DNA of 35,044 bases from Bacteroidaceae bacterium (lineage in GTDB: Bacteria > Bacteroidota > Bacteroidia > Bacteroidales > Bacteroidaceae), in contig JAGAYH010000018.1 of NCBI GenBank assembly GCA_017940565.1, positions 1 to 35,044 on the forward strand, given 5' to 3'. The translations under genes were made by a program, and so were the position numbers. Below the pieces are notes generated by a model. The model had not been told where the DNA came from. It saw nothing but the letters and a program-made list of their open reading frames with translations, and ran no database searches. Shown here piece after piece: positions 1,490 through 32,049 of this stretch (positions are counted from its first letter, which is position 1; each line of letters starts with the position of its first letter).

Positions 1490-1552
1490 CGAAAACGGAC
1501 TTGTAATTCACGAAAACGGATTTAGGCCGGACGAAAACGGATTTAGATTATC
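1490..1552 (+). repeat. 21-bp triplet array, locus A
   Basis: Three head-to-tail units start at 1490, 1511 and 1532, exactly 21 bp apart. They begin CGAAAACGGACTTG, CGAAAACGGATTTAGG and CGAAAACGGATTTAGA; the last six bases of each unit vary. The array points toward the GT2 gene and ends about 100 bp before its -7 box. Because the upstream gene is divergent, this copy cannot be a terminator of an upstream transcript in the same direction. Confidence 0.85.
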
Positions 1553-1629
1553 AGCTTTCCCGAAAAGGGGCCCGATGTCATTTTAGGGTAATTCTTTTTC
1601 GGCCCGACAGACGAATTTTGCCGGTTGCG

Positions 1630-1661
1630 TTTGCCTGTTCGCTCGGTTTGCCTTAAATTTG
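1630..1661 (+). promoter_or_regulatory. Promoter of the GT2 gene
   Basis: TTTG at 1630-1633 (the -33 box), a 20-bp spacer and TAAATTTG at 1654-1661 (the -7 box) fit the Bacteroidota promoter. The ATG follows only 8 nt after the box, so the mRNA should have almost no leader. Confidence 0.75.
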
Positions 1662-1669
1662 CAGTAATT

Positions 1670-2719
1670 ATGAAGTACAGTATCATTATTCCGGTCTATA
1701 ACCGTCCGGACGAGGTGGACGAACTCCTGGCCAGCCTCACGCGGCAGACAGAGCGCGACTTTGAAGTGGTCGTCGTGGAGGACGGCTCGTCGGTAAGGTG
1801 CGACGCCGTGGTGGCCAAGTATGAGGCCAGCCTGCCCGTGCGCTACCTGGAAAAGCCCAATTCAGGCCCCGGTCAGACACGCAACTACGGTGCGGAGCGT
1901 GCCGCAGGCGAATGGCTCATCATTCTCGATTCCGACTGCGTGTTGCCCGACGGTTACCTGGCCGCGGTGGAGGCTGAACTGGCCCGCGAGCCGGCCGATG
2001 CTTTCGGCGGTCCCGACCGGGCCCATGCCGACTTCACCCCGACGCAGAAGGCCATCAACTACGCCATGACGTCGTTTTTCACCACGGGCGGCATACGCGG
2101 CGGACGGAAGAAACTGGACAAATTCTTCCCCCGCAGTTTCAACATGGGCATCCGCCGCGAAGTCTATGAGGCCCTGGGCGGATTTTCTGCCATGCGTTTC
2201 GGCGAGGACATCGACCTGAGCCTGCGCATCTACAAGGGCGGCTACCGCTGCCGCCTCTTTCCTGAAGCCTGGGTGTGGCACAAGCGCCGCACCGACTTGC
2301 GGAAATTCTTCAAGCAGGTGCACAACAGCGGCATCGCCCGCATCAACCTGATGAAGCGCCATCCCGGGTCGCTGAAGTTGGTCCACCTGCTGCCTGCCGT
2401 GTTCACCGTGGGCGTGGCCGCCCTGCTGTGCCTGTTCTTGGCCGGACTGTACCTTTATATAATAGGTCCCGACCACATGAACCGGAGTTTCGGTTGGGCA
2501 TTGATGGAGCTGGGCCTACTGCCAATCGTGCTGTACGCGCTGATGTTGTTTGTCGATGCCTCCGTGCGCAACCGTAGCGTGGTGATAGGTCTGAAGTCCG
2601 TCGTCGCCTCGTTTGTGCAGCTGACGGGCTACGGCTCGGGCTTCCTCCGGGCCTGGTGGCGGCAGTGTGTGAGAGGCAAGGCCTCGTTTGAGGCGTTCAA
2701 AGATAACTTCTACAAGTGA
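1670..2719 (+). CDS. Family 2 glycosyltransferase, membrane-anchored
   Basis: 349 aa. The N-terminal GT-A domain (about residues 3-230) opens with IIIPVYNRPDEV, has the nucleotide-binding VEDGSS and the metal-binding motif LDSDC (D87, D89), and later GEDIDLSLRI, the usual GT2 (G/E)ED acceptor-side motif. Hydrophobic segments at about 245-270 and 280-305 suggest a C-terminal membrane anchor, with a short basic cytosolic tail. It probably adds a sugar to a lipid- or membrane-linked glycan using a nucleotide sugar; donor and acceptor cannot be read from sequence. ATG at 1670 was chosen because the promoter box ends 8 nt before it; an in-frame start at 1625 would lie upstream of the promoter. The stop overlaps the radC start (TGATG), so the two are probably translationally coupled. 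Confidence 0.88.
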   Translation: MKYSIIIPVYNRPDEVDELLASLTRQTERDFEVVVVEDGSSVRCDAVVAKYEASLPVRYLEKPNSGPGQTRNYGAERAAGEWLIILDSDCVLPDGYLAAVEAELAREPADAFGGPDRAHADFTPTQKAINYAMTSFFTTGGIRGGRKKLDKFFPRSFNMGIRREVYEALGGFSAMRFGEDIDLSLRIYKGGYRCRLFPEAWVWHKRRTDLRKFFKQVHNSGIARINLMKRHPGSLKLVHLLPAVFTVGVAALLCLFLAGLYLYIIGPDHMNRSFGWALMELGLLPIVLYALMLFVDASVRNRSVVIGLKSVVASFVQLTGYGSGFLRAWWRQCVRGKASFEAFKDNFYK

Positions 2720-3504
2720 TGAAACCGGGTGAAGACGAACTGGCCGGCCGCCGGCGTCTGCTGGAGCGGCTGGGCGAATTGCATGAAGAGCCGCCGGTGG
2801 AGCCTGCAGCGGCCCGCCGCGCGTCGATCAACGAGTGGAGCGAGGACAGCCGTCCGCGCGAGCGTTGTCTGAGCTTAGGGGCTTCGGCCCTGAGCAACGC
2901 CGAACTGCTGGCCATACTCATTCACTCGGGCACTCCGTCGCAGAACGCCGTGGAGCTGATGCGTGAGGTACTGGCCTCGTGCGACGACAGCCTGGACAAA
3001 CTGGGCGAACTGACCTACGACCAGCTGACGGCCTTCAAAGGCATCGGCCAGGCCAAGGCGGTGACGCTGATGGCCGCCTGCGAGTTCGGGCGCCGCCGCA
3101 TGGTGAAGGACGCGCGGCCGAAGGCGAAACTGGACAACTCGGACAAGGTGTTCCACACGTGCCTGAAATCGCTCTTCTGGGACAAGACGGAGGAGGAGTG
3201 CTGGGTGGTGCTGCTTAACCAGAGCCTCCATTTCATCTCGAAGGAATGTATCGGCACGGGGGGCCTGACATCGGTCAGCGCCGACATCCGCAAGGTGCTG
3301 AAACTGGCTCTGCTGAAGAACGCCACGGCTATTGTCCTGGCCCATAACCATCCGTCGGGGTCGCTCAAGCCTGGCGCGGTGGACGACACTACGACGCGCA
3401 ACCTGGGCGAGGCCTGCCGTGTGATGAACATCCGCCTGCTCGACCACCTGATAGTGCATGGCGACCGGTACTACAGCTATGCCGAGCAGGGCAGACTACC
3501 GTAA
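2719..3504 (+). CDS. radC: RadC-family JAB/MPN domain protein
   Basis: 261 aa, normal length. The N-terminal third has a helix-hairpin-helix-like region (LSNAELLAILIHSGT, then LTAFKGIGQAKA), and the C-terminal half is the JAB1/MPN+ (JAMM) domain with H209-x-H211 in AHNHPSG and downstream Asp residues in the VDDTTT stretch that supply the metal site. The family was once linked to DNA repair but its actual role is unsettled; a metal-dependent peptidase or nucleic-acid role has been proposed. The ATG at 2719 overlaps the GT2 stop by one base; a GTG codon just before it is less likely. Seventeen bases separate the stop from the next gene, so the genes are probably one transcript. Confidence 0.93.
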   Translation: MKPGEDELAGRRRLLERLGELHEEPPVEPAAARRASINEWSEDSRPRERCLSLGASALSNAELLAILIHSGTPSQNAVELMREVLASCDDSLDKLGELTYDQLTAFKGIGQAKAVTLMAACEFGRRRMVKDARPKAKLDNSDKVFHTCLKSLFWDKTEEECWVVLLNQSLHFISKECIGTGGLTSVSADIRKVLKLALLKNATAIVLAHNHPSGSLKPGAVDDTTTRNLGEACRVMNIRLLDHLIVHGDRYYSYAEQGRLP

Positions 3505-3521
3505 GAAACGTAAAAGAGAAT

Positions 3522-3845
3522 ATGGAAGAAAACAAGAAACTGCAGATTGAAGAGAGCATCGTCGAAGCCCTCAAAACGGTCTATGACCCCGAAATACCCG
3601 TGAACATCTACGATCTGGGCCTCATCTACAAGGTGGACTACCACGAGGAGGACGGCACGCTCGACGTGGACATGACGCTGACGGCCCCGGGCTGTCCGCT
3701 GGCCGACTACATCGTGGAGGACGTGCGCCAGAAACTGGTGGCCATCGAAGGCGTGACCTCGGCGGTGGTCAATCTGGTGTTTGAACCGGAGTGGACGCAG
3801 GACATGATGAGCGAGGAGGCCAAGGCCGACCTGGGATTTCTGTAA
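3522..3845 (+). CDS. MIP18/SufT-type metal-sulfur cluster assembly protein (DUF59)
   Basis: 107 aa, essentially one DUF59/MIP18 domain. Diagnostic motifs are VYDPEIPVNIYDLGLIY near the N-terminus and LTAPGCPLADYI with the conserved Cys; the C-terminal part has VVNLVFEPEWT. Relatives (SufT, PaaD, human MIP18/CIAO2) help mature Fe-S proteins. In Bacteroidota this small protein often occurs alone rather than inside a suf operon, as here. It sits 17 bp behind radC and 81 bp ahead of lpxH; the gap to lpxH holds a 21-bp array. Targets are unknown; the class I fumarase later in this window is one Fe-S enzyme in the cell, but no direct link is implied. Confidence 0.9.
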   Translation: MEENKKLQIEESIVEALKTVYDPEIPVNIYDLGLIYKVDYHEEDGTLDVDMTLTAPGCPLADYIVEDVRQKLVAIEGVTSAVVNLVFEPEWTQDMMSEEAKADLGFL

Positions 3846-3867
3846 CCGCCGGCAGGGCTCTGAAAGC

Positions 3868-3930
3868 CGAAAACGGATTTGGAACGGACGAAAACCGATT
3901 TAGTTCGCACGAAAACGCATATAGAAATGA
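3868..3930 (+). repeat. 21-bp triplet array, locus B, running into the lpxH start
   Basis: Units start at 3868, 3889 and 3910 with exact 21-bp spacing. They begin CGAAAACGGATTTGG, CGAAAACCGATTTAG and CGAAAACGCATATAG. The array begins 23 bp after the stop of the SufT-like gene, and the lpxH ATG (3927) is bases 18-20 of the third unit. No TAnnTTTG box is seen in the gap, so the array is probably transcribed as part of an intercistronic region. Confidence 0.85.
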
Positions 3931-4673
3931 AAAAAGTCTATTTCCTCAGCGACGCGCACCTCGGCTCATGGGCCATAGGCCGCTGGCGCGAGAATGAACG
4001 CCGGCTGGTGGCCTTTCTGGAGAGCATCCGCCACGAGGCCTCGGCCATTTATATACTCGGCGACCTGTTTGACTTCTGGCACGAGTACCGCTATGTGGTG
4101 CCCAAGGGCTACACACGCCTCCTGGGCAAGTTGGGCGAGTTGTGCGACCAGGGCGTGGAGGTGCATGTCTTCACCGGCAATCACGACCTCTGGTGCGGCG
4201 ACTATCTGGAGAAAGAATGTGGCGTGACACTGCACCGCGAGGCCCTGACGGTGAAACTGCAGGGCGTGAATCTCTTTATGGCCCACGGCGACGGCCTGGA
4301 CCGCACGGACAAGAAGTATCTGGCCCTGCGCTGGATGTTCCATAACCGCGTCTGCCAGCGCCTGTTCGCATCGATACATCCCCGCTGGGCCATGTGGTTC
4401 GGCTATACCTGGGCCAAACACAGCCGCAAGAAGCACGAGCAAGAGGAAGGCCATTTCGAAGGCCTGGAGAAGGAAGGCCTGGCCGTGTTCGCACGCCACT
4501 ACCTGAAGGACCATCCCGAGACCGATGCGTTTCTGTTCGGCCACTACCATGTGGAGGTGGACGAGATGCTGAGCCCCAAGACACGCTTCATCATCCTGGG
4601 CGAATGGATAAGCAAGTTTACCTACGTGGTGCTCGAAGAAGGGAAACTGACGATGAAAAATTATTCGGAATAA
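3927..4673 (+). CDS. lpxH: UDP-2,3-diacylglucosamine diphosphatase, LpxH type
   Basis: 248 aa. A calcineurin-like metallophosphoesterase with every metal motif: SDAHLG (D9, H11), GDLFDFW (D46), GNHD (85-87), AHGDG and FGHYH. The FDFWHEY sequence after GDL is typical of LpxH. It hydrolyses UDP-2,3-diacylglucosamine to lipid X plus UMP on the inner face of the inner membrane, in lipid A synthesis. ATG at 3927 is chosen because it gives the standard MKKVYFLSDAHLG start; the frame stays open upstream only through the 21-bp array and would need a non-ATG start. The next gene begins 6 bp after the stop, suggesting co-transcription with the macroglobulin. Confidence 0.9.
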   Translation: MKKVYFLSDAHLGSWAIGRWRENERRLVAFLESIRHEASAIYILGDLFDFWHEYRYVVPKGYTRLLGKLGELCDQGVEVHVFTGNHDLWCGDYLEKECGVTLHREALTVKLQGVNLFMAHGDGLDRTDKKYLALRWMFHNRVCQRLFASIHPRWAMWFGYTWAKHSRKKHEQEEGHFEGLEKEGLAVFARHYLKDHPETDAFLFGHYHVEVDEMLSPKTRFIILGEWISKFTYVVLEEGKLTMKNYSE

Positions 4674-4679
4674 ACAATC

Positions 4680-7600
4680 ATGAAAAACCTGCTGCTTAGT
4701 ATCATGCTCGCCCTGTTCCCGCTGGCGGGTTTTGCGCAGACGTATGCCGGCCTGTGGAAAGAGGTGGCGGCGTATCAACAGAAGGACCTGCCCAAAAGCG
4801 CGCTGCAGAGCGTGGACAAGATTGTGGCCCAGGCGCTCCGGCGCGGCGACGGCGGCCAACTGGTCAAAGCCGTTATGGTGAGACACCAACTGGCCGGCGA
4901 CATCTCGCCCGACAGTGCCAAGATGCTAATACCCCGTCTGGAATCGTATCTGGCCAAGGAAGAAAAGGCCGAAATGCAGGCAATCTATCATTCCGTGCTC
5001 GGCCGGCTTTATGCCTGCGAAAACCCGTGGCGCAATGAAGAAGCCGCCAAGCAAGCGGTGATGCACTACACCAGGTCGCTCGACCATGCAGCGCTGTTGG
5101 CAACGGTGAAGGCCGCCAAGTATGTGCCGCTGGTGGAAGTGGGAGAGGACAGCAGATATTATCGCCACGACCTGCTGCACGTCGTGATGAACAATATGTT
5201 TGATCTGAACAGGATGCACGATGCCTCGGAAGGTATAGACACGGTGCACATGAAAGCGTATCACAAGGCCATCGGCGTGTACCGCAGTCTGGGCAACCGC
5301 GACGGCGAACTGCTCATGATGCTCGACTCGGCCGAGACGGCACGCGTGTTTTACCGCGAAAGTCTGAGCCAGACTCTCGGCAAAGACTGCTTTACGGACC
5401 AGGCGCGGACACAGTTCTATGAATCGCTGCTGGCCCGCGACGGCGACTTGGAGACGGCAGTGGAAATCTATTGCAAACTGGCCGGGATACAACCTGTGGA
5501 GAACATTTACCGGTGGGCCAACGAGGGCATACGCCGCTTCCCTAAGTCGAAACGTACCAATTTCTTGCGCGACAGACTGGAGCAGATTGTCCAGCCACAA
5601 GTGAGCTTGATTCTGCCAAACCACGTTGCCTATCCTGGCGAAACCGACAGTGCCGAGGTGACAGGCCGCCATGTTTCGGGCGGCGTGCTCAAATTCTACC
5701 GCTTGCCCTACAAGGTCAATGACAAGGAACTGGAAACACTGTTTGACAACGAGGCAAAACTGAAACCTTTTCTGAAAAACGCCGTGGCAGAGTATCCTTT
5801 CACATTGCCCAAAGGCGCACCCTATGAAACAGTCAAGTGCAAGTTGAAAGTGGAGATGCCGCGCGAAGCCGGACTCTATTGTGCCGTATTAGAACCTTCG
5901 CCCGGTGAAAAACACCATTTCCCGAACGGGGAGAGAACCATCCTGATGCATGTTACACGTTTGTACATCATGCAGCTGGCCTTGCCCAACGGCCAGACGC
6001 GGGTGTTTGTCTGTGATTCCAAAACAGGCCATCCCGTTGCCGGCGTGCAGGTGCAATTGCGTTCTAGAGATAAAAAAAGGCCTGCCGTAAGCAATTATAC
6101 GACCGATGCCAATGGGGCTGCGCTGGTGCCTTCGATGGAATGGGGCTACGAAGTGTATGTCAAGACCGAAGCGGATGCCTATTGTCCGGCCGAAATGCTC
6201 TCACGCAGCTATGAGCGCCGGGTGTCGGAACCGACACGGAGTCGCGTGTTGCGGTTATATACCGACCGAGCCATCTATCGCCCCGGCCAGCAGGTACAGG
6301 TAGGCGGTATTATCTATGAGAAACGGGGTGACGAGGTGAAAGCCCTTGCAAACCAAAGTGTGAAGCTACGTTTTCTTGATGCCAATCATAAGGAATTGGC
6401 CAGCGAAACGGTGGTTTCGGATGAATATGGAACGTTGAAGAGCCAGCTGAAACTGCCCGAGAGCTGTCTGAACGGCATTTTCTTCATAGAATCTCAGTGG
6501 GGAACGGCCCATTACCGGGTGGAACAGTATAAGCGCCCCACATTCAAAGTGAGTCTGGAAGATGTGAAGACGGCATATCAGGCCGGCGACACCGTCCGTA
6601 TGGCAGGAACGGTAAAGACCTTCGCCGGCTTTGCCTTGCCTTCCACCCGTGTGGCTTTGGAGGTGACACGCCGTTATTCACCGTGGTGTTTCTATGGTAA
6701 CGGCAGAACACGCCAGTTGCTTCAAGACACGGTGCTGACTGATGCCGAGGGACGTTTCACCGTGCCTGTCTTTCTGGATATAGCAGAAACGGATGTACAT
6801 CCCCGAATCGCCCGTTTCTATACTTATCAGGTCGTGGCTGTGGCGATAGCTGAGAACGGCGAGAGCGAATCGGCAACGGCTAATCTCTATGCAGGAAACC
6901 GTGCCGTGTCCCTATCAACGACATTGCCGGACCGTTTGTGCAAAGAACTGTTGGATTCATGCCAACTGATTCAGCGCAATGCAGCCGGTATGCCGGTCGA
7001 GGGACTGGCACAGTATGACGTGTTGCGGGCGGGGAGTGTTGTGGCTTCGGGCACACTGCCCTTCAATAAGACTATAGCCTGCGACTGGCTTAAAACGTTG
7101 CCGTCGGGCGATTATCTGTTGCGTGTGAAGTCGGCCGACTATCCAGACTCGTTGCTTTGGTCAGAACAGAAGTTTGCTGTTTTTTCATTGGATGACAACC
7201 ATCCGGTGGGGGATGAGCCTTTACAAGTGTTCCAAACGGCAAGTGAGTTTGGGACAGACCCTGTCCGGGTACTCGTAGCCACCCCTCTGAAAGACGTGTG
7301 TCTCCACTATGACCTTTTCGCTAATGGCAAACTATTGGAAAGCCAAGTTATCGAGCTGTCCGATTCAGCATTTACTATCCCATACACCTATGCCAGTCAC
7401 TATGGCGATGGGTTATATGCCTTGTTTGCTTTCGTCAAGGCCGGGCAGTGTCATGTCCGTTCACTGACCATCACACGCCCTGTTCCTGACAAGGCGTTGG
7501 AATTGCGATGGAGCACGTTCCGCGACCGCTTGACTGCCGGCCAGGACGAGACATGGACACTCCAAGTGCTCAAAGACGGCAAGCCGGCTGAAGCTTCCGT

Positions 7601-12618: not shown

Positions 12619-12682
12619 AAGAAACGGACTTTTTTGACAACCAAAACGGAGTCAGGAAAAACGAAAACGGAGTCAGGCGCGC
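12619..12682 (+). repeat. 21-bp triplet array, locus C (divergent variant)
   Basis: Three units start near 12619, 12641 and 12662 (spacing 22 and 21). They begin AAGAAACGGACTT, CCAAAACGGAGTCAGG and CGAAAACGGAGTCAGG. The core AAACGG is kept but ATTTAG is replaced by AGTCAG. It lies between convergent genes, the only array not upstream of a gene in its own direction. Confidence 0.7.
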
Positions 12683-12698
12683 CCAACTCCGCTTTCGT
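12661..12698. terminator. Inverted repeat between convergent genes
   Basis: Arms ACGAAAACGGAGT (12661-12673) and AACTCCGCTTTCGT (12685-12698) pair around a GGCGCGCC centre (12676-12683). The left arm is the last unit of array C and the right arm is an inverted copy. It could end transcription from both the glycosidase (plus) and xth (minus), but the T-tracts are poor, so the terminator role is inferred. Confidence 0.5.
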
Positions 12699-17942: not shown

Positions 17943-18007
17943 TCTTTTATACCGTTCGGTGTACTTTTGTGTTTGCGTTTGAAACGCTATCTCCGGTTTT
18001 GTCATTA

Positions 18008-18049
18008 CGAAAACGGAGATAGAGCGGACGAGAACGCATATGGATGGCA
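18008..18049 (+). repeat. 21-bp array, locus D, with an inverted copy
   Basis: Two direct units begin at 18008 (CGAAAACGGAGATAG) and 18029 (CGAGAACGCATATGG), exactly 21 bp apart. Just upstream, 17985-18002 is an inverted copy (minus-strand reading begins CAAAACCGGAGATAGCG), so the first forward unit can pair with it. The array points toward the MATE gene, 88 bp before the first of its two -7 boxes. Confidence 0.75.
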
Positions 18050-18077: not shown

Positions 18078-18144
18078 CTCATTCGGCTAAGTAAAGAAAC
18101 TTATGGGTTTCTTTCCCTTAGCTCTCATTTTATTCGTACCTTTG
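18078..18144 (+). repeat. Duplicated promoter segment, copy 1
   Basis: A 67-bp segment identical base for base to 18156-18222; the repeat period is 78 bp with an 11-bp spacer. It holds a small hairpin (AAAGAAAC pairing with GTTTCTTT) and ends in TACCTTTG (18137-18144), a full -7 box. Transcription from this copy would give a leader of about 85 nt containing all of copy 2. Confidence 0.9.
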
Positions 18145-18155
18145 GATAAGGTACT

Positions 18156-18222
18156 CTCATTCGGCTAAGTAAAGAAACTTATGGGTTTCTTTCCCTTAGC
18201 TCTCATTTTATTCGTACCTTTG
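18156..18222 (+). repeat. Duplicated promoter segment, copy 2 (MATE promoter)
   Basis: Second identical copy. Its TACCTTTG box (18215-18222) ends 9 nt before the MATE ATG at 18232, so transcripts from here should be nearly leaderless. Confidence 0.9.
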
Positions 18223-22575: not shown

Positions 22576-22579
22576 GATG

Positions 22580-23574: not shown

Positions 23575-23617
23575 AGTTGTAATAGTTTAGAATGTGATTG
23601 TTTGTCAAATAATGGGA

Positions 23618-24910
23618 TTATTTAATGGCGTCGAGGGCTTGGCTGATATCATCGATGATGTCGTCGATATGCTCTGTGCCAATACTCAGGCGGATGGTTG
23701 AAGGATAGATGTGCTGCTGTTCCAGTTCCTCCGGAGTCAGCTGGGAGTGGGTAGTAGTTGCCGGATGAATGACCAGGCTCTTCACATCGGCCACGTTGGC
23801 CAGAAGTGAGAAAATCTTCAAGTGATCGATAAAAGTCCAGGCTTCGGCCTGTCCTCCCTTTACTTCAAAAGTAAATATGGAACCGGCTCCCTGCGGAAAC
23901 AGTTTTTCGTACAAGGCGTGGCTCGGGTGCTCGGGCAACGAGGGGTGGTTGACACGCGCCACCTTGGGATGCTTCGACAGGAAGTCCACCACCTTTATTG
24001 TGTTGTACACATGACGTTCAACGCGTAAACTGAGCGTTTCTAACCCTTGCAAAAGAATCCAGGCGTTGAAAGGAGAAATGGCGGCACCGGTGTCGCGCAA
24101 GATGACGGCACGTATGCGTGTGACGAAAGCGGCTTTTCCTGCCACATCGGCAAAGACGGCACCATGATAACTCGGGTCGGGTTGGGCAAGGGTAGGATAC
24201 TTGTCGGCATTGGCTTTCCAGTCAAAGTTGCCTGAATCGACAATGACCCCGCCCAGACTGCTCCCGTGGCCACCGATGAACTTGGTGGCGGAGTGCACTA
24301 CCACATCTGCTCCATGTTCTATGGGACGAATCAGGTAAGGCGTGCCAAACGTGTTGTCCACAATGACAATCGTCCGGTGGCGGTGGGCGATTTCCGCAAT
24401 GCGGTCAATGTCTGTCACGCTGGCGTTCGGATTGCCGAAAGTCTCAATCATCACAGCCTTGGTGTTCGGGCGGAAAGCGCGTTCCACTTCATCAAAATCA
24501 TCGGGATTGACAATCGTCACCTCCACACCCTGAGTAGTCAGTGTATGCTCCAAGAGATTATAAGTACCACCATAGAGGTTGTTCGCCGCAATCACATGGT
24601 CGCCGTTGCGTGCCACATTTTGCAAGGCATACGTAATGGCAGCCGCTCCTGAAGCCACAGCCAATCCGGCCACTCCGCCTTCCAAGGCAGCCACACGTTC
24701 TTCAAACACGCCCTGCGTACTGTTGGTCAAACGTCCGTAGATGTTGCCGGCGTCGCGAAGCCCAAAGCGGTCGGCACCGTGCTGTGCGTTGCGAAATACG
24801 TAAGATGTGGTCTGGTAGATAGGCACGGCGCGTGAATCGGTCGTCGGGTCAGCCTGCTCCTGCCCCACATGAAGTTGTAATGTCTCAAAATGCAATTTTT
24901 TTGTAGCCAT
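23618..24910 (-). CDS. metY: O-acetylhomoserine sulfhydrylase (MetY)
   Basis: 430 aa, a Cys/Met-metabolism PLP enzyme. Motifs are [19 protein letters not shown], the [11 protein letters not shown] loop, [18 protein letters not shown] and PLP Lys K210 in [11 protein letters not shown]. The length of ~430 and the long insertion before the C-terminal domain favour O-acetylhomoserine sulfhydrylase over the shorter cystathionine gamma-synthase. It makes homocysteine from O-acetylhomoserine and sulfide for methionine synthesis; asd, further along the window, supplies the same branch. A leader of about 55 nt precedes it; no known riboswitch was recognised in it by eye. Confidence 0.93.
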
Positions 24911-24969
24911 AATGTTTCCTGTTTTATAATTATTTTATTTCTATTCTCAGCACCCTTAGGTTCACGATG

Positions 24970-24977
24970 CAAAGGTA
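24970..24977 (-). promoter_or_regulatory. -7 promoter box of metY-cysK
   Basis: Minus-strand TACCTTTG, a full match, 59 nt before the metY ATG at 24910. The leader is AT-rich, with no strong hairpin seen. Confidence 0.65.
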
Positions 24978-25162
24978 CGCCGGTTTTTCTTTTGCCACAA
25001 TACCATTCGCACGGCATTCTTTATCGCACAAGTGTGGTATTTTCTGTTTAAAACATATGGAATATCTGTATAGAATGACTATGATAGCTCTGATAATCAA
25101 TGGTTATGGCTGTGTAAACAAAAAAACATCGTTTCTCAGTCATTACTCTCAAGTTTTTTCAG

Positions 25163-25170
25163 TAACTTTG
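25163..25170 (+). promoter_or_regulatory. -7 promoter box of tRNA-Ser
   Basis: TAACTTTG, a full match, 16 nt before the mature tRNA-Ser 5' end, as expected for a short tRNA leader. Confidence 0.7.
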
Positions 25171-25186
25171 CACCCGATAAAACCAA

Positions 25187-25274
25187 GGAGAGGTGCTCGA
25201 GTGGTTGAAGAGGCACGCCTGGAAAGCGTGTAACCGGCGAAACCGGTTCGCAGGTTCGAATCCTGTTCTCTCCG
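25187..25274 (+). tRNA. tRNA-Ser (anticodon GGA)
   Basis: 88 nt, a class II tRNA with a long variable arm (the TAACCGGCGAAACCGGTT region). Acceptor arms GGAGAGG and TTCTCTCC pair; the anticodon stem GCCT/AAGC frames loop anticodon GGA, reading UCC and UCU; the T-arm has GGTTCGAATCC. The 3' CCA is not fully encoded (GCA follows the stem). It has its own promoter. Confidence 0.95.
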
Positions 25275-25368
25275 CAGATTGTTCATCGGAATCGGTGGGT
25301 CACCATATGATTTCGATGAATTTGTTTTTTACTTTCACCCCAAAAGTCACCCGAATGGTCTTTTGCCG

Positions 25369-25427
25369 CAAAGGTGGGACCTTGAATTTTCGAAACGGCG
25401 TCTCGAAAATTTGAAGTCCCACCTTTG
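25369..25427. repeat. 59-bp palindrome between tRNA-Ser and gdhA
   Basis: Outer arms CAAAGGTGGGAC and GTCCCACCTTTG pair perfectly over 12 bp; the inner part (TTGAATTTTCGA versus TCGAAAATTTGAA) continues the stem with a one-base bulge, leaving a loop of about 9 nt around AACGGCG. It lies between convergent tRNA-Ser and gdhA. It could be a terminator, but neither side has a good T-tract, and its core TTTTCGAAACGGCGTCTC is shared with two other palindromes in the window. Confidence 0.8.
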
Positions 25428-25464
25428 TTATGGGGTGTACGGTATTCTTTTGCCGTTATACTTT

Positions 25465-26799
25465 TTATAGGATACCTTGGGCCATCATGGCACGTGCCAC
25501 TTTCATGAAGGCGCTGATGTTGGCGCCAGCCACGTAGTCAGTGGTGCCGTCGGGGCGTGTGCCATATTTCTGACACTGGGCATGGATGTCGGCCATGATG
25601 CGTTGCAGTTGCTGGTCCACTTCTTCTGCGCTCCACGCGCGCTTCATGGCGTTTTGGCTCATTTCAAGCCCTGAAACGCTCACGCCGCCAGCATTGGAGG
25701 CCTTGCCGGGTGCATAGAGTAAACCGGCGGTCTGGAATATCTTGATGGCATCGGGTGTGGAGGGCATGTTGGCGCCTTCGCTGACGGCGATGCAGCCATT
25801 GCTCACCAGGGTTTGGGCGTCTTCTGCCGTTATCTCGTTCTGTGTGGCGCTGGGCATGGCGATGTCGCACTTCTCGCTCCATGGACGGGCGCCGGCAACA
25901 TATTTCACACCGTATTTCTCGGCATATTCCCACATGCGGCCGCGGTAGAGGTTTTTCAGTTCCATGATATAATCCAGTTTTTCGCGGTCTATGCCGTCAG
26001 GGTCGTAGATGTATCCGTCGCTGTCGGAGAGGGTGACGACCTTGGCTCCCTCTTGGATAAGTTTGTCCACTGTGTATTGTGCCACGTTGCCTGCGCCCGA
26101 AACGGCCACCACTTTTCCCTTGAGGTCAAGGCTGCGTGTGGCGAGCATGTGCTTCAGGAAATACACGTTGCCGTAGCCGGTGGCTTCGGGGCGTATCAGG
26201 CTGCCGCCAAACTCGAGTCCTTTGCCGGTGAGTGTTCCCGTGTTCTCGCGGGCCAGTTTCTTGTACATACCGTAGAGAAATCCCACCTCACGTCCGCCTA
26301 CGCCGATGTCGCCGGCGGGCACGTCGGTGTCAGGGCCAATATTGCGCCACAGTTCGGTCATGAAAGCCTGACAGAAGCGCATGACTTCTGTGTTTGATTT
26401 GCCACGGGGCGAAAAGTCGCTGCCGCCTTTGGCTCCACCCATGGGCAGGGTGGTGAGGGCATTCTTGAACGTTTGTTCAAAGGCCAGGAATTTCAGGATG
26501 GACAGGTTTACCGACGCGTGGAAACGCAGGCCGCCTTTATAGGGGCCGATGGCGTTGTTGTGTTGTATGCGGTATCCCATGTTTGTCTGCACCTGTCCCT
26601 TGTCGTCGGTCCAGGTCACGCGGAACGAGAGGATTCTGTCGGGTATGCACAGGCGCTCTATCAGATTGGCAGCCTCAAATTCGGGATGCTGGTTATAGAC
26701 TGGCTCAATGGAGTGCAGCACTTCGGTCACGGCCTGGATGTATTCCGGTTCGTTGGGAAAGCGCATGGACAATTGTTCAATAACTTGCTCTGTTTTCAT
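25465..26799 (-). CDS. gdhA: NADP-type glutamate dehydrogenase
   Basis: 444 aa, matching the hexameric bacterial class. The glutamate and catalytic residues are in place: K88 (GPYKGGLRF), K124 (LPMGGAKGGSDF) and D164 (PAGDIGVGGREVG); the Rossmann segment is VVAVSGAGNVAQYTVDKL. It interconverts 2-oxoglutarate plus ammonia and glutamate, the main ammonia-assimilating step in many gut Bacteroidales. NADPH preference is inferred from overall similarity to GdhA. It has its own promoter and is followed by the 59-bp palindrome. Confidence 0.96.
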   Translation of the reverse strand: MKTEQVIEQLSMRFPNEPEYIQAVTEVLHSIEPVYNQHPEFEAANLIERLCIPDRILSFRVTWTDDKGQVQTNMGYRIQHNNAIGPYKGGLRFHASVNLSILKFLAFEQTFKNALTTLPMGGAKGGSDFSPRGKSNTEVMRFCQAFMTELWRNIGPDTDVPAGDIGVGGREVGFLYGMYKKLARENTGTLTGKGLEFGGSLIRPEATGYGNVYFLKHMLATRSLDLKGKVVAVSGAGNVAQYTVDKLIQEGAKVVTLSDSDGYIYDPDGIDREKLDYIMELKNLYRGRMWEYAEKYGVKYVAGARPWSEKCDIAMPSATQNEITAEDAQTLVSNGCIAVSEGANMPSTPDAIKIFQTAGLLYAPGKASNAGGVSVSGLEMSQNAMKRAWSAEEVDQQLQRIMADIHAQCQKYGTRPDGTTDYVAGANISAFMKVARAMMAQGIL

Positions 26800-26833
26800 T
26801 TCAAATGTGTTTAAATAATGTCTTTGTTTGTTG

Positions 26834-26841
26834 CAAAATTA
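26834..26841 (-). promoter_or_regulatory. -7 promoter box of gdhA
   Basis: Minus-strand TAATTTTG, a full match, 34 nt before the gdhA ATG at 26799. Confidence 0.7.
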
Positions 26842-26891
26842 CGATTTTTCAGTGAGAAAAACAACAAAATGAAATTTTATTGCAACAAAAA

Positions 26892-26916
26892 CCGCCAAAA
26901 CGAAACATTTTGGCGG
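26892..26916 (-). terminator. Intrinsic terminator of the flippase gene
   Basis: Minus-strand arms CCGCCAAAA and TTTTGGCGG with a 7-nt loop, followed directly by TTTTTGTTG. It lies 28 bp after the flippase stop and 50 bp before the gdhA -7 box, separating the two units. Confidence 0.9.
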
Positions 26917-26944
26917 CTGTACTTGTCAAAGTGTCGCGAAAAGT

Positions 26945-28459
26945 TCAGGTGGACTTGCCAAAACGCGAGAAGCGTGCCTTGATGGCGCTGACGAAGGTCG
27001 TTTCGCGCAGCAGCAGATGGAGCGACCACCAGGCCGAGGCGCAGAAGACGGGGATGCCTGCCCCGTATTTGAACCACAAGTTGTCTTGCAGCGCAAAGTA
27101 GAGGCCAGCTGCCAGCAGCAGTCCCTGACCCAGGCCGACACGTATGGCGCGGGTCGAGAAGCGGAAGTGGTATTTCACGTGATAAATGCCGGCAATCATC
27201 AGCAGGTCGAACAGGTTGGAGGCCGTCAGGGCCACACCGGCGCCCAGCAGTCCCCAATGGGCGTAGCCGAACTCCAGCAGCACGACGAAGACAATATAAT
27301 AAAGGAGTTCCACCACGAAGTAGGTCACCGAATCGCCGCGGGCCAGAGGGATGTAGGCCACCGGCGTGGTGATGGCTTTGAAGAACATGGAGAACACGGC
27401 GCCCATGATCATAGGAATGGCCGTCATGAAGTCGGCTGTGAAGAGCAGGCGCACCAGGAAGGGCAGGCACAGGACGAAGAGCACCAGGAACGGGGCAATG
27501 AGCAGCAAGCATACCTCGAGCTGGTTGTTTATCAAGCTGTTTCGCCGCTTTATGTCATTCACACAGGCCGACAGGCGGGGGTAGTAATCGTTGTCCATGC
27601 TCACCATCACGATGCGGGCGTAAGACACCGTCAGCATGAATCCCGCCGTGTAGAGCCCTTCATCGGCCAGTCCGCCGCCCTCCACGATGAAGGCGCGCAC
27701 GGTGGCTTCGGCGGCAGCCATGATGATGCCGGCCAGCACGAACGACAGGCCCAGCTTGAGCATGTCTATACCTTGGCGGATGGTGAAGAGCGAAAACGGG
27801 TTAGCCCGCCAGGGGAACTGCTTCAGGGAAAAATGCAGGTTCAGCAGCAGCACGGCCAGCGTGCTGGCCAACAGGGCGGGCACGATGCCTTTCATGCCAA
27901 ACAGGTAGTAGAGCGGCACCGTGATGAGCAGGGTGGTCACCGCACCGATGGTCGTGGCCGTCGCCAGGGCCTTCATCTGCCTCACGGCCTTCAGAATGGC
28001 CAGTTCGGCGCCCGTAATGGCCAGCATGGCCACCAGTGGCGAGAGCAACATCATGGATACCGTGTACGACGGGTCGTGCATCAGGCGCCGGCTCAGAAGT
28101 GGCGCAAAGAGCAGACAAGCCATGAAACCCAGCAGCGCAGTCAGCACGCTCCAGCTCCGCACCACGCGCACCTGTTCCCTCAGACGGGCCTCGTCGCCTG
28201 CCTCGTAGAGCTCCGACAGCCGGCGTACGGCCGTCAGTGACAGGCCCAGTGTGGTGCTGTTGCTCAACAAGTCCATCGCCTTGTTGTACATGTCTATCAG
28301 TCCCAGTCCCTCGCGGCCCAGAAGTACGGACACAAACTTGTTGCGCACCATCGATAGCAACACCGTGATGCCCTGCACGCCGCCAAAGAGCCCCATGTAC
28401 TTCAGCACATGGTTGTAAGCGCCCGAAACGGTTTCCTGTTTTCCGTCGCCTCTGAACAT
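26945..28459 (-). CDS. Oligosaccharide flippase (Wzx-like, MOP superfamily)
   Basis: 504 aa with about 12-14 hydrophobic helices. The N-terminal pattern (YMGLFGGVQGITVLLSMVRNKFVSVLLG, then GREGLGLIDMYNKAMDLL) matches polysaccharide-type flippases of the MOP superfamily (Pfam Polysacc_synt). It likely moves a lipid-linked oligosaccharide across the inner membrane for O-antigen or capsule assembly. No polysaccharide operon surrounds it; the only sugar transferase in the window is the GT2 gene 26 kb away. ATG at 28459 is chosen because the -7 box ends 8 nt upstream; the longer frame reaching 28597 runs through a 21-bp array and lies ahead of the promoter. An unlinked role such as ECA-like export is possible. 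Confidence 0.85.
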   Translation of the reverse strand: MFRGDGKQETVSGAYNHVLKYMGLFGGVQGITVLLSMVRNKFVSVLLGREGLGLIDMYNKAMDLLSNSTTLGLSLTAVRRLSELYEAGDEARLREQVRVVRSWSVLTALLGFMACLLFAPLLSRRLMHDPSYTVSMMLLSPLVAMLAITGAELAILKAVRQMKALATATTIGAVTTLLITVPLYYLFGMKGIVPALLASTLAVLLLNLHFSLKQFPWRANPFSLFTIRQGIDMLKLGLSFVLAGIIMAAAEATVRAFIVEGGGLADEGLYTAGFMLTVSYARIVMVSMDNDYYPRLSACVNDIKRRNSLINNQLEVCLLLIAPFLVLFVLCLPFLVRLLFTADFMTAIPMIMGAVFSMFFKAITTPVAYIPLARGDSVTYFVVELLYYIVFVVLLEFGYAHWGLLGAGVALTASNLFDLLMIAGIYHVKYHFRFSTRAIRVGLGQGLLLAAGLYFALQDNLWFKYGAGIPVFCASAWWSLHLLLRETTFVSAIKARFSRFGKST

Positions 28460-28467
28460 TTCGCATG

Positions 28468-28475
28468 CAAAGTTA
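28468..28475 (-). promoter_or_regulatory. -7 promoter box of the flippase gene
   Basis: Minus-strand TAACTTTG, a full match, ending 8 nt before the ATG at 28459, again implying a nearly leaderless mRNA. Confidence 0.65.
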
Positions 28476-28545
28476 ACCCTTTTCAGAGAATTATGCTGCT
28501 TTTGCGGAAAATACCTCTCAAAGTTTCTTACAGATTCCGCTCCGC

Positions 28546-28608
28546 AGCCACCTAAATCCGTTCTCGTTCCGCCTAAATCCGTTTTCGGCGCGTCCAAATG
28601 CGTTTTCG
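28546..28608 (-). repeat. 21-bp triplet array, locus E
   Basis: Read on the minus strand, units begin at 28608, 28587 and 28566, each 21 bp: CGAAAACGCATTTGG, CGAAAACGGATTTAG and CGAGAACGGATTTAG. The array points toward the flippase gene and ends 70 bp before its -7 box. This shows the family follows the direction of the downstream gene even on the minus strand. Confidence 0.85.
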
Positions 28609-28740
28609 GCGGCCATTGCCAGTCTTTCTGGAATCTCTGGATTGTCTGGTCCGGCCAGAAATGTCTTTTCTTGAAGAAACGTGGAATTTTTGCGGAAATG
28701 TAGGGAGAGCAACGGGTGAACTATTTGCCCCTTAAATCTA

Positions 28741-28770
28741 AAAGAGAGGCTCCAGATGGAGCCTCTCTTT
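28741..28770 (-). terminator. Intrinsic terminator of asd
   Basis: Perfect 13-bp arms AAAGAGAGGCTCC and GGAGCCTCTCTTT with a 4-nt loop; on the minus strand followed by TAGATTT. It starts 28 bp after the asd stop. Confidence 0.9.
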
Positions 28771-28798
28771 CTTGTGTTTACTGAGTTACTTCTACCTT

Positions 28799-29809
28799 TT
28801 ATTTAATGTTGCCCTGCTTGATGAGCCATTCGGCTATCTGTACGGCATTGAGGGCAGCGCCCTTGCGTATCTGGTCGCCCGTGAGCCAGAATGTCAGGCC
28901 GCAGGGGTGGGCCAGGTCGCGACGGATGCGGCCTACGTAAACATCGTCCTTGCCTGCGGTGAAGAGCGGCATGGGGTATTGTTTGTTTTGCGGGTCGTCA
29001 AGCACGGTGAGCCCTTCGGCCTGCTCAAAAGCGGCGCGGGCGGCTTCGGGAGAGACCGGCGTTTCGGTTTCCACCCATACGGCCTCGGAATGGCTGCGCA
29101 ACGAGGGTACACGCACACAAGTGGCGCTGGTCTCCACGTCGCTGTGCATGATTTTGCGCGTTTCATTGTACATCTTCATCTCCTCCTTGGTGTAGTCGTT
29201 GTCAAGGAAGACGTCCACTTGCGGAATCATGTTGAATGCCAACTGGTGAGGGAACTTTTTTACCTCCACCTCGTCGCCGTCGAGTGCCTGGCGCGTCTGG
29301 GTGAGCAGTTCGTCCATAGCTACGGCTCCGGCACCGCTGGCGGCCTGATAGGACGACACGCGGATGCGGCGGATGTGGCTCAACTGCTCGATGGCCTTCA
29401 GAGCCACGACCATGATGATGGTGGTGCAATTGGGGTTGGCGATGACGCCGCGCGGGCGGTTGAGGGCGTCTTCGGGATTGCATTCGGGCACGACCAGAGG
29501 CACGTCGCTGTCCATGCGGAAAGCGCTGGAGTTGTCAATCATGACGGCCCCGTGCTTGGTGATGTCGTCAGCGTATTCCTTTGACACTCCGGCTCCGGCA
29601 CTGGTGAAGGCTACGTCGATGTCCTTGAAATCGTCGCCGTGCTGCAATAGTTGTACGGTGTATTCCTTACCCTTAAAGGTATATTGCTTTCCGGCGCTGC
29701 GGGAAGAGCCAAAAAGTTTCAGTTCATCAATAGGGAAATCACGTTCTGCCAGGATACGCAGAAATTCTTGACCGACGGCACCGCTGGCGCCAACAATAGC
29801 CACATTCAT
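28799..29809 (-). CDS. asd: Aspartate-semialdehyde dehydrogenase
   Basis: 336 aa, usual length. N-terminal NADP-binding [15 protein letters not shown], catalytic C128 in IANPNCTT and H240 in VPSLRSHSE. It makes aspartate semialdehyde from aspartyl phosphate, feeding lysine/diaminopimelate, threonine and methionine synthesis. The last of these links it to metY in this window only by pathway, not by operon. It is monocistronic, with two overlapping upstream -7 boxes and a strong terminator, and is divergent from the CPA2 antiporter. Confidence 0.96.
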
Positions 29810-29835
29810 TTTGTCTTATTTTGTCTTTAGGGTTT

Positions 29836-29854
29836 CAAAATTAGTGCAAAATTA
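29836..29854 (-). promoter_or_regulatory. Two tandem -7 boxes upstream of asd
   Basis: Minus-strand TAATTTTG occurs twice, at 29843-29836 and 29854-29847, 11 bp apart (one helical turn). Either could give a start 20-35 nt before the ATG at 29809. Confidence 0.6.
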
Positions 29855-29897
29855 GAGTTTTTTCGACGATTTGTCCGCTCTGTCCTCAGTTTTTCTT

Positions 29898-29905
29898 TAT
29901 TTTTG
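29898..29905 (+). promoter_or_regulatory. -7 promoter box of the CPA2 antiporter
   Basis: TATTTTTG, a full match, 18 nt before ATG 29924. A TTG inside the box (29903) is in frame but cannot be a start if this is the promoter. Confidence 0.65.
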
Positions 29906-29923
29906 CACAAAAATAGCGCGGTT

Positions 29924-31990
29924 ATGACTTCTTTGCTTGCCCTGACGCTTCCAATTGCCAACCCCACGTGGATTTTCTTCGTGGTGTTGCTCATTATTCT
30001 GTTGGCTCCGCTGCTCTTCGAGCGTCTGCACATACCGCAGCTGGTCGGCATGATATTGGCAGGTATCGCCGTGGGCCCTCATGGCTTGGGCTTATTGACG
30101 CGTGACAGCAGTTTTGAACTCTTCGGACAAGTGGGTCTCTACTACATCATGTTTACCGCCGGTCTGTCAATGGACACGTCGGCCCTGAAGCGCAACCGCT
30201 TTCAGGTCATCACTTTCGGACTGCTGTCGTTCCTGTTGCCGTTTGTCATCGGAGGCCTGGTGGCATACAAACTGATGCATTACTCGCTGGCTGCCTCATG
30301 TCTGGTGGCATGCATCCTCTCGAGCCATACGCTGGTGGCATTCCCCATTGTGTCGCGCTACGGCCTGACGCGTTATCCCGGCGTGACGTTGGCCATAGTG
30401 GCCACGATGATTTCGCTGGTATTGGCCCTTCTGGGCCTGGCCGGACTCTCGGGCAGCCTGCAGGGCGAGGAGGGGTGGTCGCTCTGGTTGTGGCTGCTGG
30501 TCAAGTGTGCGCTCTTTGTGACGGGACTGTTCTATGTGTATCCCCGCCTCATCCGTTTCTTCTTCCGCACCTTTTCGGATGATGTGTTACAGTACATTTT
30601 CGTTCTGGTACTGGTGTTCCTCAGCGCGGCCGTGAGCCAGGCTTTGGGTCTCGAAGGCGTGTTGGGAGCGTTTTTGGCCGGCTTGATTTTCGGACGTTAC
30701 ATTCCCGAGGCTGTTCCCCTGATGCGTCATATCGATTTTGTGGGAAATGCCCTCTTCATACCCTATTTTCTGATAGGTGTGGGCATGCTCATCAATCTTC
30801 CTCAGATGTTTGCCCGCCCGGACAGCCTGCTGTTTATCTTGATTTTTGTTGTCCTGGCCTTGCTGACGAAGGCGTTGGCCTGTCTGTTGGCAGGTCGCCT
30901 GTTCCGTTTGAGCTACGAGGTGCAGACGATGATGACCGGCCTCACCAGTGGCCATGCGGCCGGTGCGCTGGCCATGGTCATGGTGGGCATGCAGCTGACG
31001 TTGCCTTCGGGTGAGCCTTTGGTGAGCGACGAGTTGCTCAACGCGGTGGTCATGCTGATTCTCTGCTCATGTCTGTTCAGCGCTTTCGTCACGACACACG
31101 CCTCCAAGCGCATTGCCAAGGTGGGTGTCAGCGATGAGGAGAAACAAGGAGAGGAAGACAAGATTCTGGTGGCCTTGCGCAATCCTGAAACCATGCCCAA
31201 CCTGGTCAGCCTGGCCCTGATGATGCGTCCTCACCGCTCCACGGCGCCGCTGGTGGGTGTGAAACTGGTCGTTGACGCTACTGACAACGAGCGTGAGCTC
31301 AATGCCGCCCGTCAACTGGTGAAAGAAGCTGCCAGTGTTGCCGCCTCGGCCGGTGTCAATATGAAAAAAGTGGTGCGTTCCGGCGTCAATGTCATCACCG
31401 CCCTCACTTACACGATGAAGGACTTTGAAGCCAGCGAGATTCTCATGGGCTATCACTGGCAGGACGGCCGGATGGCCTCCAGTCTTGGCAGTCAGATAGG
31501 CGACCTCCTGCTGCGCGTGCCGCGACAGGTAAGCATCGTCCACTTCACCCGTGCCGTCAACACCCTGCGCTGCATCCATGTCATTGTGCCCCGCGACGCC
31601 GAGCTCGAAGTGGGGTTCTACCGCTGGCTCATGCACGTCAGCCGTCTCGCACGTCAGATGGACTGCCGCATCATGTTCTATTGCACCCCGACGGCGTGGG
31701 AAACCATACGCGAGTTTTGCGGACAGCACTACAAGACCATCCGCATGTCCTACGTGCGTTTCGACCGCTTCAGCGACTTCCCCACATTGGCCGCCACGGT
31801 CCACGACGACCATCTGCTCGTGCTCGTCTGTGCCCGCGAAGGCTCCTTCTCCTGGCAGACTGAATTCCAAAAAATCCCTGCCATCATTACCCGGTCGTTC
31901 GCCCACTGCAGTGTCATGCTCATTTTCCCCGACCAATACGGCATAGAACATCCGAAGTCGGCCTTCTCCACCGGCTTCCGTCCGAACTAA
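29924..31990 (+). CDS. CPA2-type cation:proton antiporter with cytosolic tail
   Basis: 688 aa. Residues ~1-390 form 12-13 membrane helices of the CPA2 (Kef/NhaS-like) fold, with PQLVGMILAGIAVGPHGLG in the first helices and LEGVLGAFLAGLIFGRYIPE in the centre. Residues ~400-688 form a soluble tail with two universal-stress-protein-like halves (MMRPHRSTAPLVGVKLV, ILMGYHWQDGRM); no TrkA-N domain is seen. It likely exchanges Na+ or K+ for H+ in pH or ion homeostasis, with the tail as a regulatory domain. Ion choice is unknown. Its stop TAA (31988-31990) is part of the first unit of the 21-bp array F, and tcdA begins 49 bp later, so both are probably one transcript. Confidence 0.9.
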   Translation: MTSLLALTLPIANPTWIFFVVLLIILLAPLLFERLHIPQLVGMILAGIAVGPHGLGLLTRDSSFELFGQVGLYYIMFTAGLSMDTSALKRNRFQVITFGLLSFLLPFVIGGLVAYKLMHYSLAASCLVACILSSHTLVAFPIVSRYGLTRYPGVTLAIVATMISLVLALLGLAGLSGSLQGEEGWSLWLWLLVKCALFVTGLFYVYPRLIRFFFRTFSDDVLQYIFVLVLVFLSAAVSQALGLEGVLGAFLAGLIFGRYIPEAVPLMRHIDFVGNALFIPYFLIGVGMLINLPQMFARPDSLLFILIFVVLALLTKALACLLAGRLFRLSYEVQTMMTGLTSGHAAGALAMVMVGMQLTLPSGEPLVSDELLNAVVMLILCSCLFSAFVTTHASKRIAKVGVSDEEKQGEEDKILVALRNPETMPNLVSLALMMRPHRSTAPLVGVKLVVDATDNERELNAARQLVKEAASVAASAGVNMKKVVRSGVNVITALTYTMKDFEASEILMGYHWQDGRMASSLGSQIGDLLLRVPRQVSIVHFTRAVNTLRCIHVIVPRDAELEVGFYRWLMHVSRLARQMDCRIMFYCTPTAWETIREFCGQHYKTIRMSYVRFDRFSDFPTLAATVHDDHLLVLVCAREGSFSWQTEFQKIPAIITRSFAHCSVMLIFPDQYGIEHPKSAFSTGFRPN

Positions 31991-32049
31991 AACGCATTTG
32001 GTCGGGACGAAAACGGATTTAGACACGACGAAAACGGATATGGAACTAC
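31987..32049 (+). repeat. 21-bp triplet array, locus F, bridging two genes
   Basis: Units start at 31987, 32008 and 32029, exactly 21 bp apart: CTAAAACGCATTTGG, CGAAAACGGATTTAG and CGAAAACGGATATGG. The first unit includes the antiporter stop codon (31988-31990); the third contains the candidate tcdA ATG (32040-32042). The array therefore fills the whole intercistronic gap. Confidence 0.85.

What the first reader, a model, noticed from the sequence alone, without database searches (positions are those of the whole stretch)
1490..32049. A family of 21-bp triplet arrays at six intergenic sites
Arrays at 1490-1552, 3868-3930, 12619-12682, 18008-18049 (with an inverted neighbour), 28546-28608 (minus) and 31987-32049 share a unit starting CGAAAACGG(A/C)TTTAG plus six variable bases, repeated at exactly 21 bp in five of six loci, normally three times. 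Five of six point in the direction of the following gene, on either strand. They are between genes for unrelated functions (GT2, lpxH, MATE, flippase, tcdA). 21 bp equals two helical turns, which would put each unit on the same DNA face; it is also seven codons. Six loci in 35 kb suggest a genome-wide element. I do not recall a described family of this kind; candidates are a DNA-binding protein site, an RNA processing or stability element, or a non-autonomous repeat.
Basis: partly seen in the sequence, partly recalled or inferred. Interest (0 to 1): 0.85.

Follow-up and report, generated by a model that had tools for sequence, protein, structure and literature searches.

The report
Helix-phased palindrome triplets between genes
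This gut bacterium's chromosome carries, in most of its longer spaces between genes, just one short array of usually three 15-letter near-palindromes set 21 letters (two turns of DNA) apart; many relatives keep this geometry with different letters, which suggests that a DNA-binding protein or a mobile-element process acts on them and that they may mark gene borders.

Summary
The arrays are real, far beyond chance, and genome-wide. The window holds seven, not six; the seventh (34952-35008) has another sequence. In 805 kb of this 1.79-Mb Bacteroidaceae MAG I found 149 arrays (3 in reversed sequence), 112 with exactly three units. Units are 15-bp 7-1-7 near-palindromes in either orientation, 21 bp apart almost without exception; three unit classes share this register. 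Gaps hold one array each: 129 with one, 2 with two (about 28 with two or more expected by chance). 102 of 143 gaps of at least 200 bp are occupied, in all gene orientations. The sister species has arrays in the same gaps (23 shared, 7 not, p=1e-8), often of another class. Among 80 named Bacteroidaceae loci, a strict test finds arrays at lags 22 and 21, with genome-specific units. Same-orientation class-C arrays show no RNA-folding excess (z -0.06). Some arrays lie in frame inside genes (aroE, cobT). Best reading (0.42): phased binding sites for a cooperative DNA-binding protein at transcription-unit borders. Main rival (0.33): a REP/MITE-like mobile repeat with exclusion. No binding protein was identified.

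The parts
1490..1546 (+). Array 1, three units (class B/C by the joint models), 21-bp register; divergent gap before a glycosyltransferase-2 gene
   Evidence: Pfam PF00535 for the gene; gene calls
3868..3924 (+). Array 2, three class-C units; fills the 81-bp tandem gap between an Fe-S assembly (DUF59-type) gene and an LpxH-like phosphoesterase gene; the sister species G018 has one unit here
12641..12697 (.). Array 3, three class-C units (+,+,-); convergent gap
17987..18043 (.). Array 4, three class-C units (-,+,+); tandem gap before a MATE-family gene
28552..28608 (-). Array 5, three class-C units, all minus; tandem gap between minus-strand genes
31987..32043 (+). Array 6, three class-C units; the first unit contains the stop codon of the Na/H-exchanger gene; G018 has a degenerate 21-bp-register array here by eye
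34952..35008 (.).

Best explanation
The arrays are helically phased sets of DNA-binding sites. Each 15-bp 7-1-7 near-palindrome is one site, probably for a dimer or a bipartite DNA-binding domain. Three sites on one face of duplex DNA, two turns apart, let a protein bind cooperatively, whatever the direction of transcription. One such array per intergenic gap marks borders between transcription units, plausibly as a roadblock, insulator or nucleoid anchor. Shown: the register, the copy number, one per gap, no bias to gene direction, no RNA structure in same-orientation class-C arrays, use of the same gaps in the sister species, and the same kind of geometry with other letters in part of the sampled Bacteroidaceae. 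Inferred: that a protein binds, that it binds cooperatively, and the border role. The protein is not identified. How arrays arise is left open; gain as a block is suggested by aroE.
For: Spacing 21 bp: class C 167 of 168 neighbour pairs, class A 71 of 72, class B 143 of 148; 281 unit pairs at lag 21 against at most 2 at each of lags 17-20 and 22-25. Three units in 112 of 149 arrays. One per gap: 129 gaps with one, 2 with two, null mean 28; replicated in G018: 66, 3, null mean 14. Classes C and A/B do not share a gap in G000: 83 and 50, none both. Same gaps used in G018: 23 both, 26 neither, 7 one only. Class C is not RNA structure: same-orientation arrays z -0.06, n=26; halves less complementary than random halves, 4.27 against 4.68 of 7. 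No gene-direction bias, 67:57. Strict lag test in 80 named loci: 40 arrays at lag 22, 12 at lag 21, at most 3 at any other lag 14-40.
Against: No protein or binding data. Classes A/B and several other species' arrays do fold as RNA (z about -3 to -9). 41 of 143 long gaps are empty, and 11 arrays lie inside called genes, which a border role does not predict. Class-switched arrays show no clear spacer or flank homology (8 pairs), so in-place coevolution is not shown. By the strict test G012 has only 2 arrays and G017 none, so the feature is uneven even in the genus.
Confidence: 0.42

Rival explanations
1. A non-autonomous dispersed element (REP-, MITE- or Rickettsia-palindromic-element-like). 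The triplet is a block of recombinase or transposase binding sites that inserts where tolerated; an exclusion rule like target immunity keeps insertions to one per neighbourhood.
For: In-frame array in aroE in G000 and G018, while 15 of 15 other congeners with a match align in two pieces around it. Class A/B arrays share spacers like copies of one element (30 spacer pairs at >=10/12 against 7.5 expected). B. cellulosilyticus arrays are near-identical copies. Use of coding loops resembles Rickettsia palindromic elements (passages of PMC10969869).
Against: No Y1/RAYT transposase found in G000 or G018 (4 of 19 congeners have one) and no Mu-type transposase in either (1 of 19), though both MAGs are incomplete. 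Class-C spacers are nearly unrelated between arrays (11 pairs at >=10/12 against 2.1 expected). No terminal repeats or target duplications were shown (by eye).
Confidence: 0.33
2. RNA-level elements: terminators or 3'-end hairpins, with class C as a variant.
For: Class A/B arrays fold strongly (mean z -4.7, n=45), B. cellulosilyticus -9.1 (n=11), others at lag 22 -3.2 (n=40). Arrays lie nearer the upstream stop in tandem gaps: class C 39 to 10.
Against: Same-orientation class-C arrays fold like shuffles (z -0.06, n=26). Divergent gaps are occupied as often as others (36 of 52). Exact helical spacing is not expected for separate RNA hairpins (inference).
Confidence: 0.15
3. Operators of an ordinary transcription-factor regulon.
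For: Dyad sites, multiple and phased, often between genes.
Against: About one array per gap next to genes of unrelated function, in convergent as well as divergent gaps; no fixed distance to the start codon.
Confidence: 0.07
4. Neutral minisatellites made by slippage.
For: Some neighbouring units and spacers are identical within an array, so local duplication occurs.
Against: Copy number stays near three, spacing does not drift, orientation is mixed within arrays, and there is one per gap.
Confidence: 0.03

Closest known systems
REP / BIME / REPIN (RAYT-linked extragenic palindromes)
   Same: Many short palindromic units in and near intergenic DNA, in small clusters with mixed orientation; said to bind proteins such as gyrase and IHF (passages of PMC2817692)
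   Different: Units here are 15 bp with exact 21-bp spacing and fixed count; class C is not a hairpin; no RAYT found in G000 or G018. CGTC-tagged REPs are reported from Bacteroidetes (passage of PMC3733652) but I did not compare them directly
BrickBuilt MITE of Porphyromonas gingivalis
   Same: Same order (recalled); intergenic tandem units of 23 nt at 19 places; 22- and 23-nt tandem repeats were reported for strain W83 (abstract and passages of PMC4596501)
   Different: BrickBuilt has 1 to 22.8 copies, conserved leader and tail, same-direction units and indels up to 6%; here near-fixed count, no shared flanks in class C, mixed orientation
Rickettsia palindromic elements
   Same: Palindromic repeats found in frame inside protein genes (passages of PMC10969869)
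   Different: RPEs are about 150 bp and not phased arrays
Operator or iteron arrays; Mu/Tn7-type transposon ends (recalled, no call)
   Same: Three or four adjacent protein sites about two helical turns apart
   Different: Hundreds of solo arrays with no linked replication or transposase gene seen; PF09299 not found in G000 or G018

Membership tests
REP / BIME | Unit folds as a hairpin | tested here: not met
   Not met for class C (same-orientation z -0.06, n=26; halves less alike than random); class A/B do fold (z -4.7)
REP / BIME | RAYT (Y1 transposase) in the genome | tested here: inconclusive
   PF01797: none in G000 or G018; 4 of 19 congeners. MAGs are 63% and 68% complete; G012, 99% complete, has none and only 2 arrays by the strict test
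MITE (BrickBuilt type) | Conserved terminal inverted repeats, leader and tail | tested here: inconclusive
   Class-C flanks: 0.58 bits at the first base, at most 0.36 bits at any of the next 29. Terminal repeats were not searched for systematically
MITE (BrickBuilt type) | Insertion as a block with target duplication | tested here: inconclusive
   Empty sites in aroE (15 of 15 other congeners with a match) and a G000-only array in a sulfatase-family gene; no duplication seen by eye
Intrinsic terminators | Hairpin plus T-run at transcript 3' ends | tested here: not met
   Class C same-orientation arrays do not fold; T in the 10 nt after arrays 3.2 and 2.8 of 10 for class C, 3.1 and 2.7 for A/B. 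Class A/B fold, so they could be terminators
Phased protein-binding array | Sites on one helical face at constant spacing | tested here: met
Phased protein-binding array | A protein that binds the sites | not testable with these tools
   No candidate identified
Mu/Tn7-type transposon end | Mu-type transposase encoded | tested here: inconclusive
   PF09299 in 1 of 19 congeners, not in G000 or G018; incomplete MAGs, and the tool's 14 control genomes gave no hit, so sensitivity is unproven

The most novel reading that the evidence does not exclude
In Bacteroidaceae, chromosomes carry a punctuation system in which geometry, not sequence, is conserved: one array of three or four dyad sites, two helical turns apart, per transcription-unit border. 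It is read by a lineage-specific, fast-evolving DNA-binding protein, so that hundreds of loci change their letters together between sister species while keeping place, number and phase.
Probability: 0.3. Interest if true: 0.92.

Novelty: new variant of a known kind. Interest (0 to 1): 0.75.

Why it matters
In the repeat families I compared, the sequence is what is shared; here spacing, count and one-per-gap placement are shared and the sequence varies between genomes. If a protein reads these arrays it would be an abundant architectural or boundary factor in a major gut family, and its coevolution with hundreds of sites would be testable. If it is a mobile repeat, it shows an unusual exclusion rule and in-frame insertion into genes. 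Bacteroides cellulosilyticus, a cultured relative, has four-unit 22-bp arrays and makes experiments possible.

Tried and rejected
Direction with the downstream gene: 67 to 57 units, rejected. RNA hairpin as the basis of class C: rejected. Slippage minisatellite: disfavoured by fixed count and spacing. One regulon: disfavoured. A first test with inverted and direct matches was dropped because odd lags pick up ordinary hairpins (lags 19 and 23 also scored); it was replaced by a triple score (14 both, 11 neither, 7 one only, p=0.0036) and then by the motif scan. The exact tandem G000 pattern gave nothing in genome contigs (the window's own genome may be left out there). Stray exact 15-mers in the family (15 of 251 genomes, G000 included, the rest one or two each) are near the level of the reversed-pattern control. 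Rfam: only two tRNAs in the window. In-place rewriting of arrays between species: tested, not shown. tRNA genes explain few empty long gaps: 6 of 41, against 5 of 102 occupied.

Not explained: a looser lag test of the 80 named loci also showed excesses at other lags, for example 44 (45 arrays, twice 22), 51 (15 in 13 loci), 14 (14), 24 (11) and 23 (10), against 56 at lag 22 and 18 at lag 21; many of the short lags are 7-bp-type simple repeats. The strict test covered lags 14-40 only.

Literature: ten searches of an open-access library listed no paper that I recognised as describing 21/22-bp phased palindrome triplets in Bacteroidaceae; most subscription papers are not held. Seen: PMC4596501 (outline with abstract, passages), PMC2817692, PMC3733652, PMC10969869 and PMC5771137 (passages), PMC2267715 (searched for three genus names, no occurrence); other papers as search listings only.

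Limits: gene calls come from my own codon-usage caller, so some 'inside gene' arrays may be wrong calls (for example one near a predicted start and one in an apparent fusion). The motif models were trained on DNA that they then scan; controls are reversed sequence, other lags and shuffles. The G000 sample is 805,100 of 1,789,610 bases from ten contigs, mostly large ones seen in the hit list, not random. For G018 I used 40 contigs (38 by number, C96 and C210 because they held exact hits) and four loci fetched because of G000 arrays; this choice can favour shared arrays, where two of those four loci count as G000-only.
Full report
WHAT IS THERE. The window is contig C44 of G000, a 1.79-Mb, 63%-complete genome. 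A congener, G013, matches in contig length and gene position the record of uncultured Prevotellaceae bacterium RUG376, so the genus is probably a rumen-type Bacteroidaceae genus (inference). All six reported arrays exist, and there is a seventh of another sequence class at 34952-35008. Shuffled windows give none in 100 trials.

THE UNIT. Listing hits in 430 kb showed that units keep a 21-bp register in either orientation. The unit is a 15-bp 7-1-7 near-palindrome, roughly CKAAAWCSGWTTTMG, with a variable 6-bp spacer. A symmetric model found 101 arrays in 805 kb against 1 in reversed sequence, 84 of 101 with three units. Half-sites come as an A type (CGAAAAC) and T types (CTAAATC, CTATATC, CTAACTC and others). 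Units with two A-type halves are nearly absent (1 seen, 30 expected), and the halves of a unit are less alike than random halves (4.27 against 4.68 of 7, s.d. 0.06). Adjacent units are more often in the same orientation (92 against 41 mixed), but there is no bias to gene direction (67 to 57 in tandem gaps).

THREE CLASSES, ONE GEOMETRY. Two further unit classes, A (AGAAACGSCGTTTCT) and B (seeded with CGAAGTCGGACTTCG), use the same register and can be mixed within an array. Joint scan: 149 arrays in 805,100 bases of G000 (3 in reversed sequence), 112 with three units; 46 in 277,846 bases of G018 (0 in reversed), 32 with three. Neighbour spacing: class C 167 pairs at 21 and 1 at 42; class A 71 at 21 and 1 at 19; class B 143 at 21 and 5 between 34 and 61. 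The B model overlaps C in what it detects, so these three counts are not independent.

WHERE. Of 287 gaps of 60 bp or more outside the prophage-like stretch, 129 have one array, 2 have two and 156 none; random placement gives a mean of 28 gaps with two or more (minimum 19 in 2000 trials). G018: 66 with one, 3 with two, 111 none; null mean 14, minimum 6. Of gaps of at least 200 bp, 102 of 143 are occupied in G000 and 53 of 97 in G018. In G000 class C and class A/B arrays occupy different gaps (83, 50, none both; three arrays of mixed class were counted as A/B). Gaps of 150 bp or more are occupied in all orientations: divergent 36 of 52, tandem 59 of 99, convergent 16 of 24. In tandem gaps class-C arrays lie nearer the upstream stop (39 to 10). 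The first 41 kb of C48, which I read as a prophage from its product sequences without a family search, have no array of two or more units.

RELATIVES. The exact G000 15-mer is nearly private: 131 in G000, 2 in G018, none in the 17 other congeners. The geometry is not private, but it is uneven. In 56 syntenic gaps of G000 and G018, 23 have arrays in both, 26 in neither, 5 only in G000 and 2 only in G018 (p=1.4e-8). 12 of the 23 have no class-A unit in G000 but have one in G018; 14 of 23 have three units in both. For the 14 three-unit pairs spacers are more alike than between non-orthologous arrays (0.43 against 0.26, p=0.001), but in the 8 class-switched pairs spacers (0.32) and flanks (0.27 against a null of 0.29) are not clearly so; replacement and in-place change cannot be told apart. 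In 549 gaps of 80 named loci the strict test finds 40 arrays at lag 22 (30 loci), 12 at lag 21 (8 loci) and at most 3 at any other lag from 14 to 40; a looser test shows further lags, some unexplained. Consensus units of these 52 arrays are more dyadic than shuffles (0.83 against 0.68 of pairs; 38 of 52 at 5/6 or better) and there are three to five units, most often four. B. cellulosilyticus has 141 matches to AAAGATGGCATCTTT at <=2 mismatches against 43 for the reversed pattern (a palindrome counts twice), and four-unit 22-bp arrays at 11 of 13 places inspected: 5 convergent, 5 tandem, 1 divergent. In 20 genomes of other families, 140 gaps gave 3 arrays at lag 22 (two in one genome) and 1 each at lags 30 and 34; G012 gave 2 at lag 21 and G017 none, while a looser count gave G012 12 and G010 9 runs at lag 21.

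INSIDE GENES. Eleven of 149 arrays lie fully inside called genes. In aroE (shikimate dehydrogenase, Pfam PF08501), G000 and G018 both have three units in the same place with different letters (G018 read by eye), while all 15 other congeners with a match align in two pieces around it (nine of them also aligned). A sulfatase-family membrane protein (PF00884) has an array in G000 but not, by protein alignment, in G018 or the five others aligned (DNA of three seen). cobT (PF02277) also carries one. This suggests gain as a block.

MECHANISM. Exact helical spacing, mixed orientation, lack of folding in same-orientation class-C arrays (z -0.06, n=26; mixed-orientation -4.1, n=33; intergenic control -0.6, n=60) and avoidance of self-complementary halves point to recognition on duplex DNA. 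Class A/B arrays do fold strongly (z -4.7, n=45), so an RNA role for them is open. One per gap, and use of the same gaps in the sister species, point to a role at, or an exclusion rule for, gene borders. The protein or enzyme is not known. I give 0.42 to phased protein-binding arrays with a border role, 0.33 to a mobile repeat with exclusion, 0.15 to RNA elements, 0.07 to a regulon and 0.03 to neutral minisatellites.

KNOWN OR NOT. REP/BIME, BrickBuilt and Rickettsia palindromic elements are the nearest kinds I found. The exact phase, near-fixed count, mixed orientation and one-per-gap rule set these arrays apart; the general kind, species-specific dispersed repeats mostly between genes, is known. 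So: a new variant of a known kind on present evidence, and possibly more if a reading protein is found.

Noticed in passing
window 18078-18222: A perfect 78-bp direct repeat (1.9 copies) just downstream of array 4, running into the start of the MATE-family gene; probably a recent duplication.
   Followed up: no
   Followed up: yes
G000 C48:1-41000 (L044-L046): Prophage-like stretch with a 16.7-kb open reading frame and no array of two or more units; read from product sequences only.
   Followed up: partly
L125:938-1765 (aroE of G000) and L281 (G018): In-frame three-unit array in the aroE coding sequence of both species with different letters; absent from 15 other congeners with a match.
   Followed up: yes
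G000 C15:119995-121716 (L036-L037): Apparent fusion of a membrane-protein gene and a HAD-like hydrolase gene with an array as in-frame linker (names by eye).
   Followed up: no
L142:18309-18752, L143:26-289, L140:15187-15376 (G017): Tandem arrays with a period near 42-43 bp containing palindromes, in a congener without strict 21-bp arrays.
   Followed up: no
L148:162-353 and L148:7993-8160 (G010): 21-bp arrays of the palindrome TGACGCACTGCGTCA in another congener, two large arrays in inverted arrangement.
   Followed up: no
80 named loci L151-L230: Looser lag test shows an excess at lag 51 (15 arrays in 13 loci) that I did not explain.
   Followed up: no
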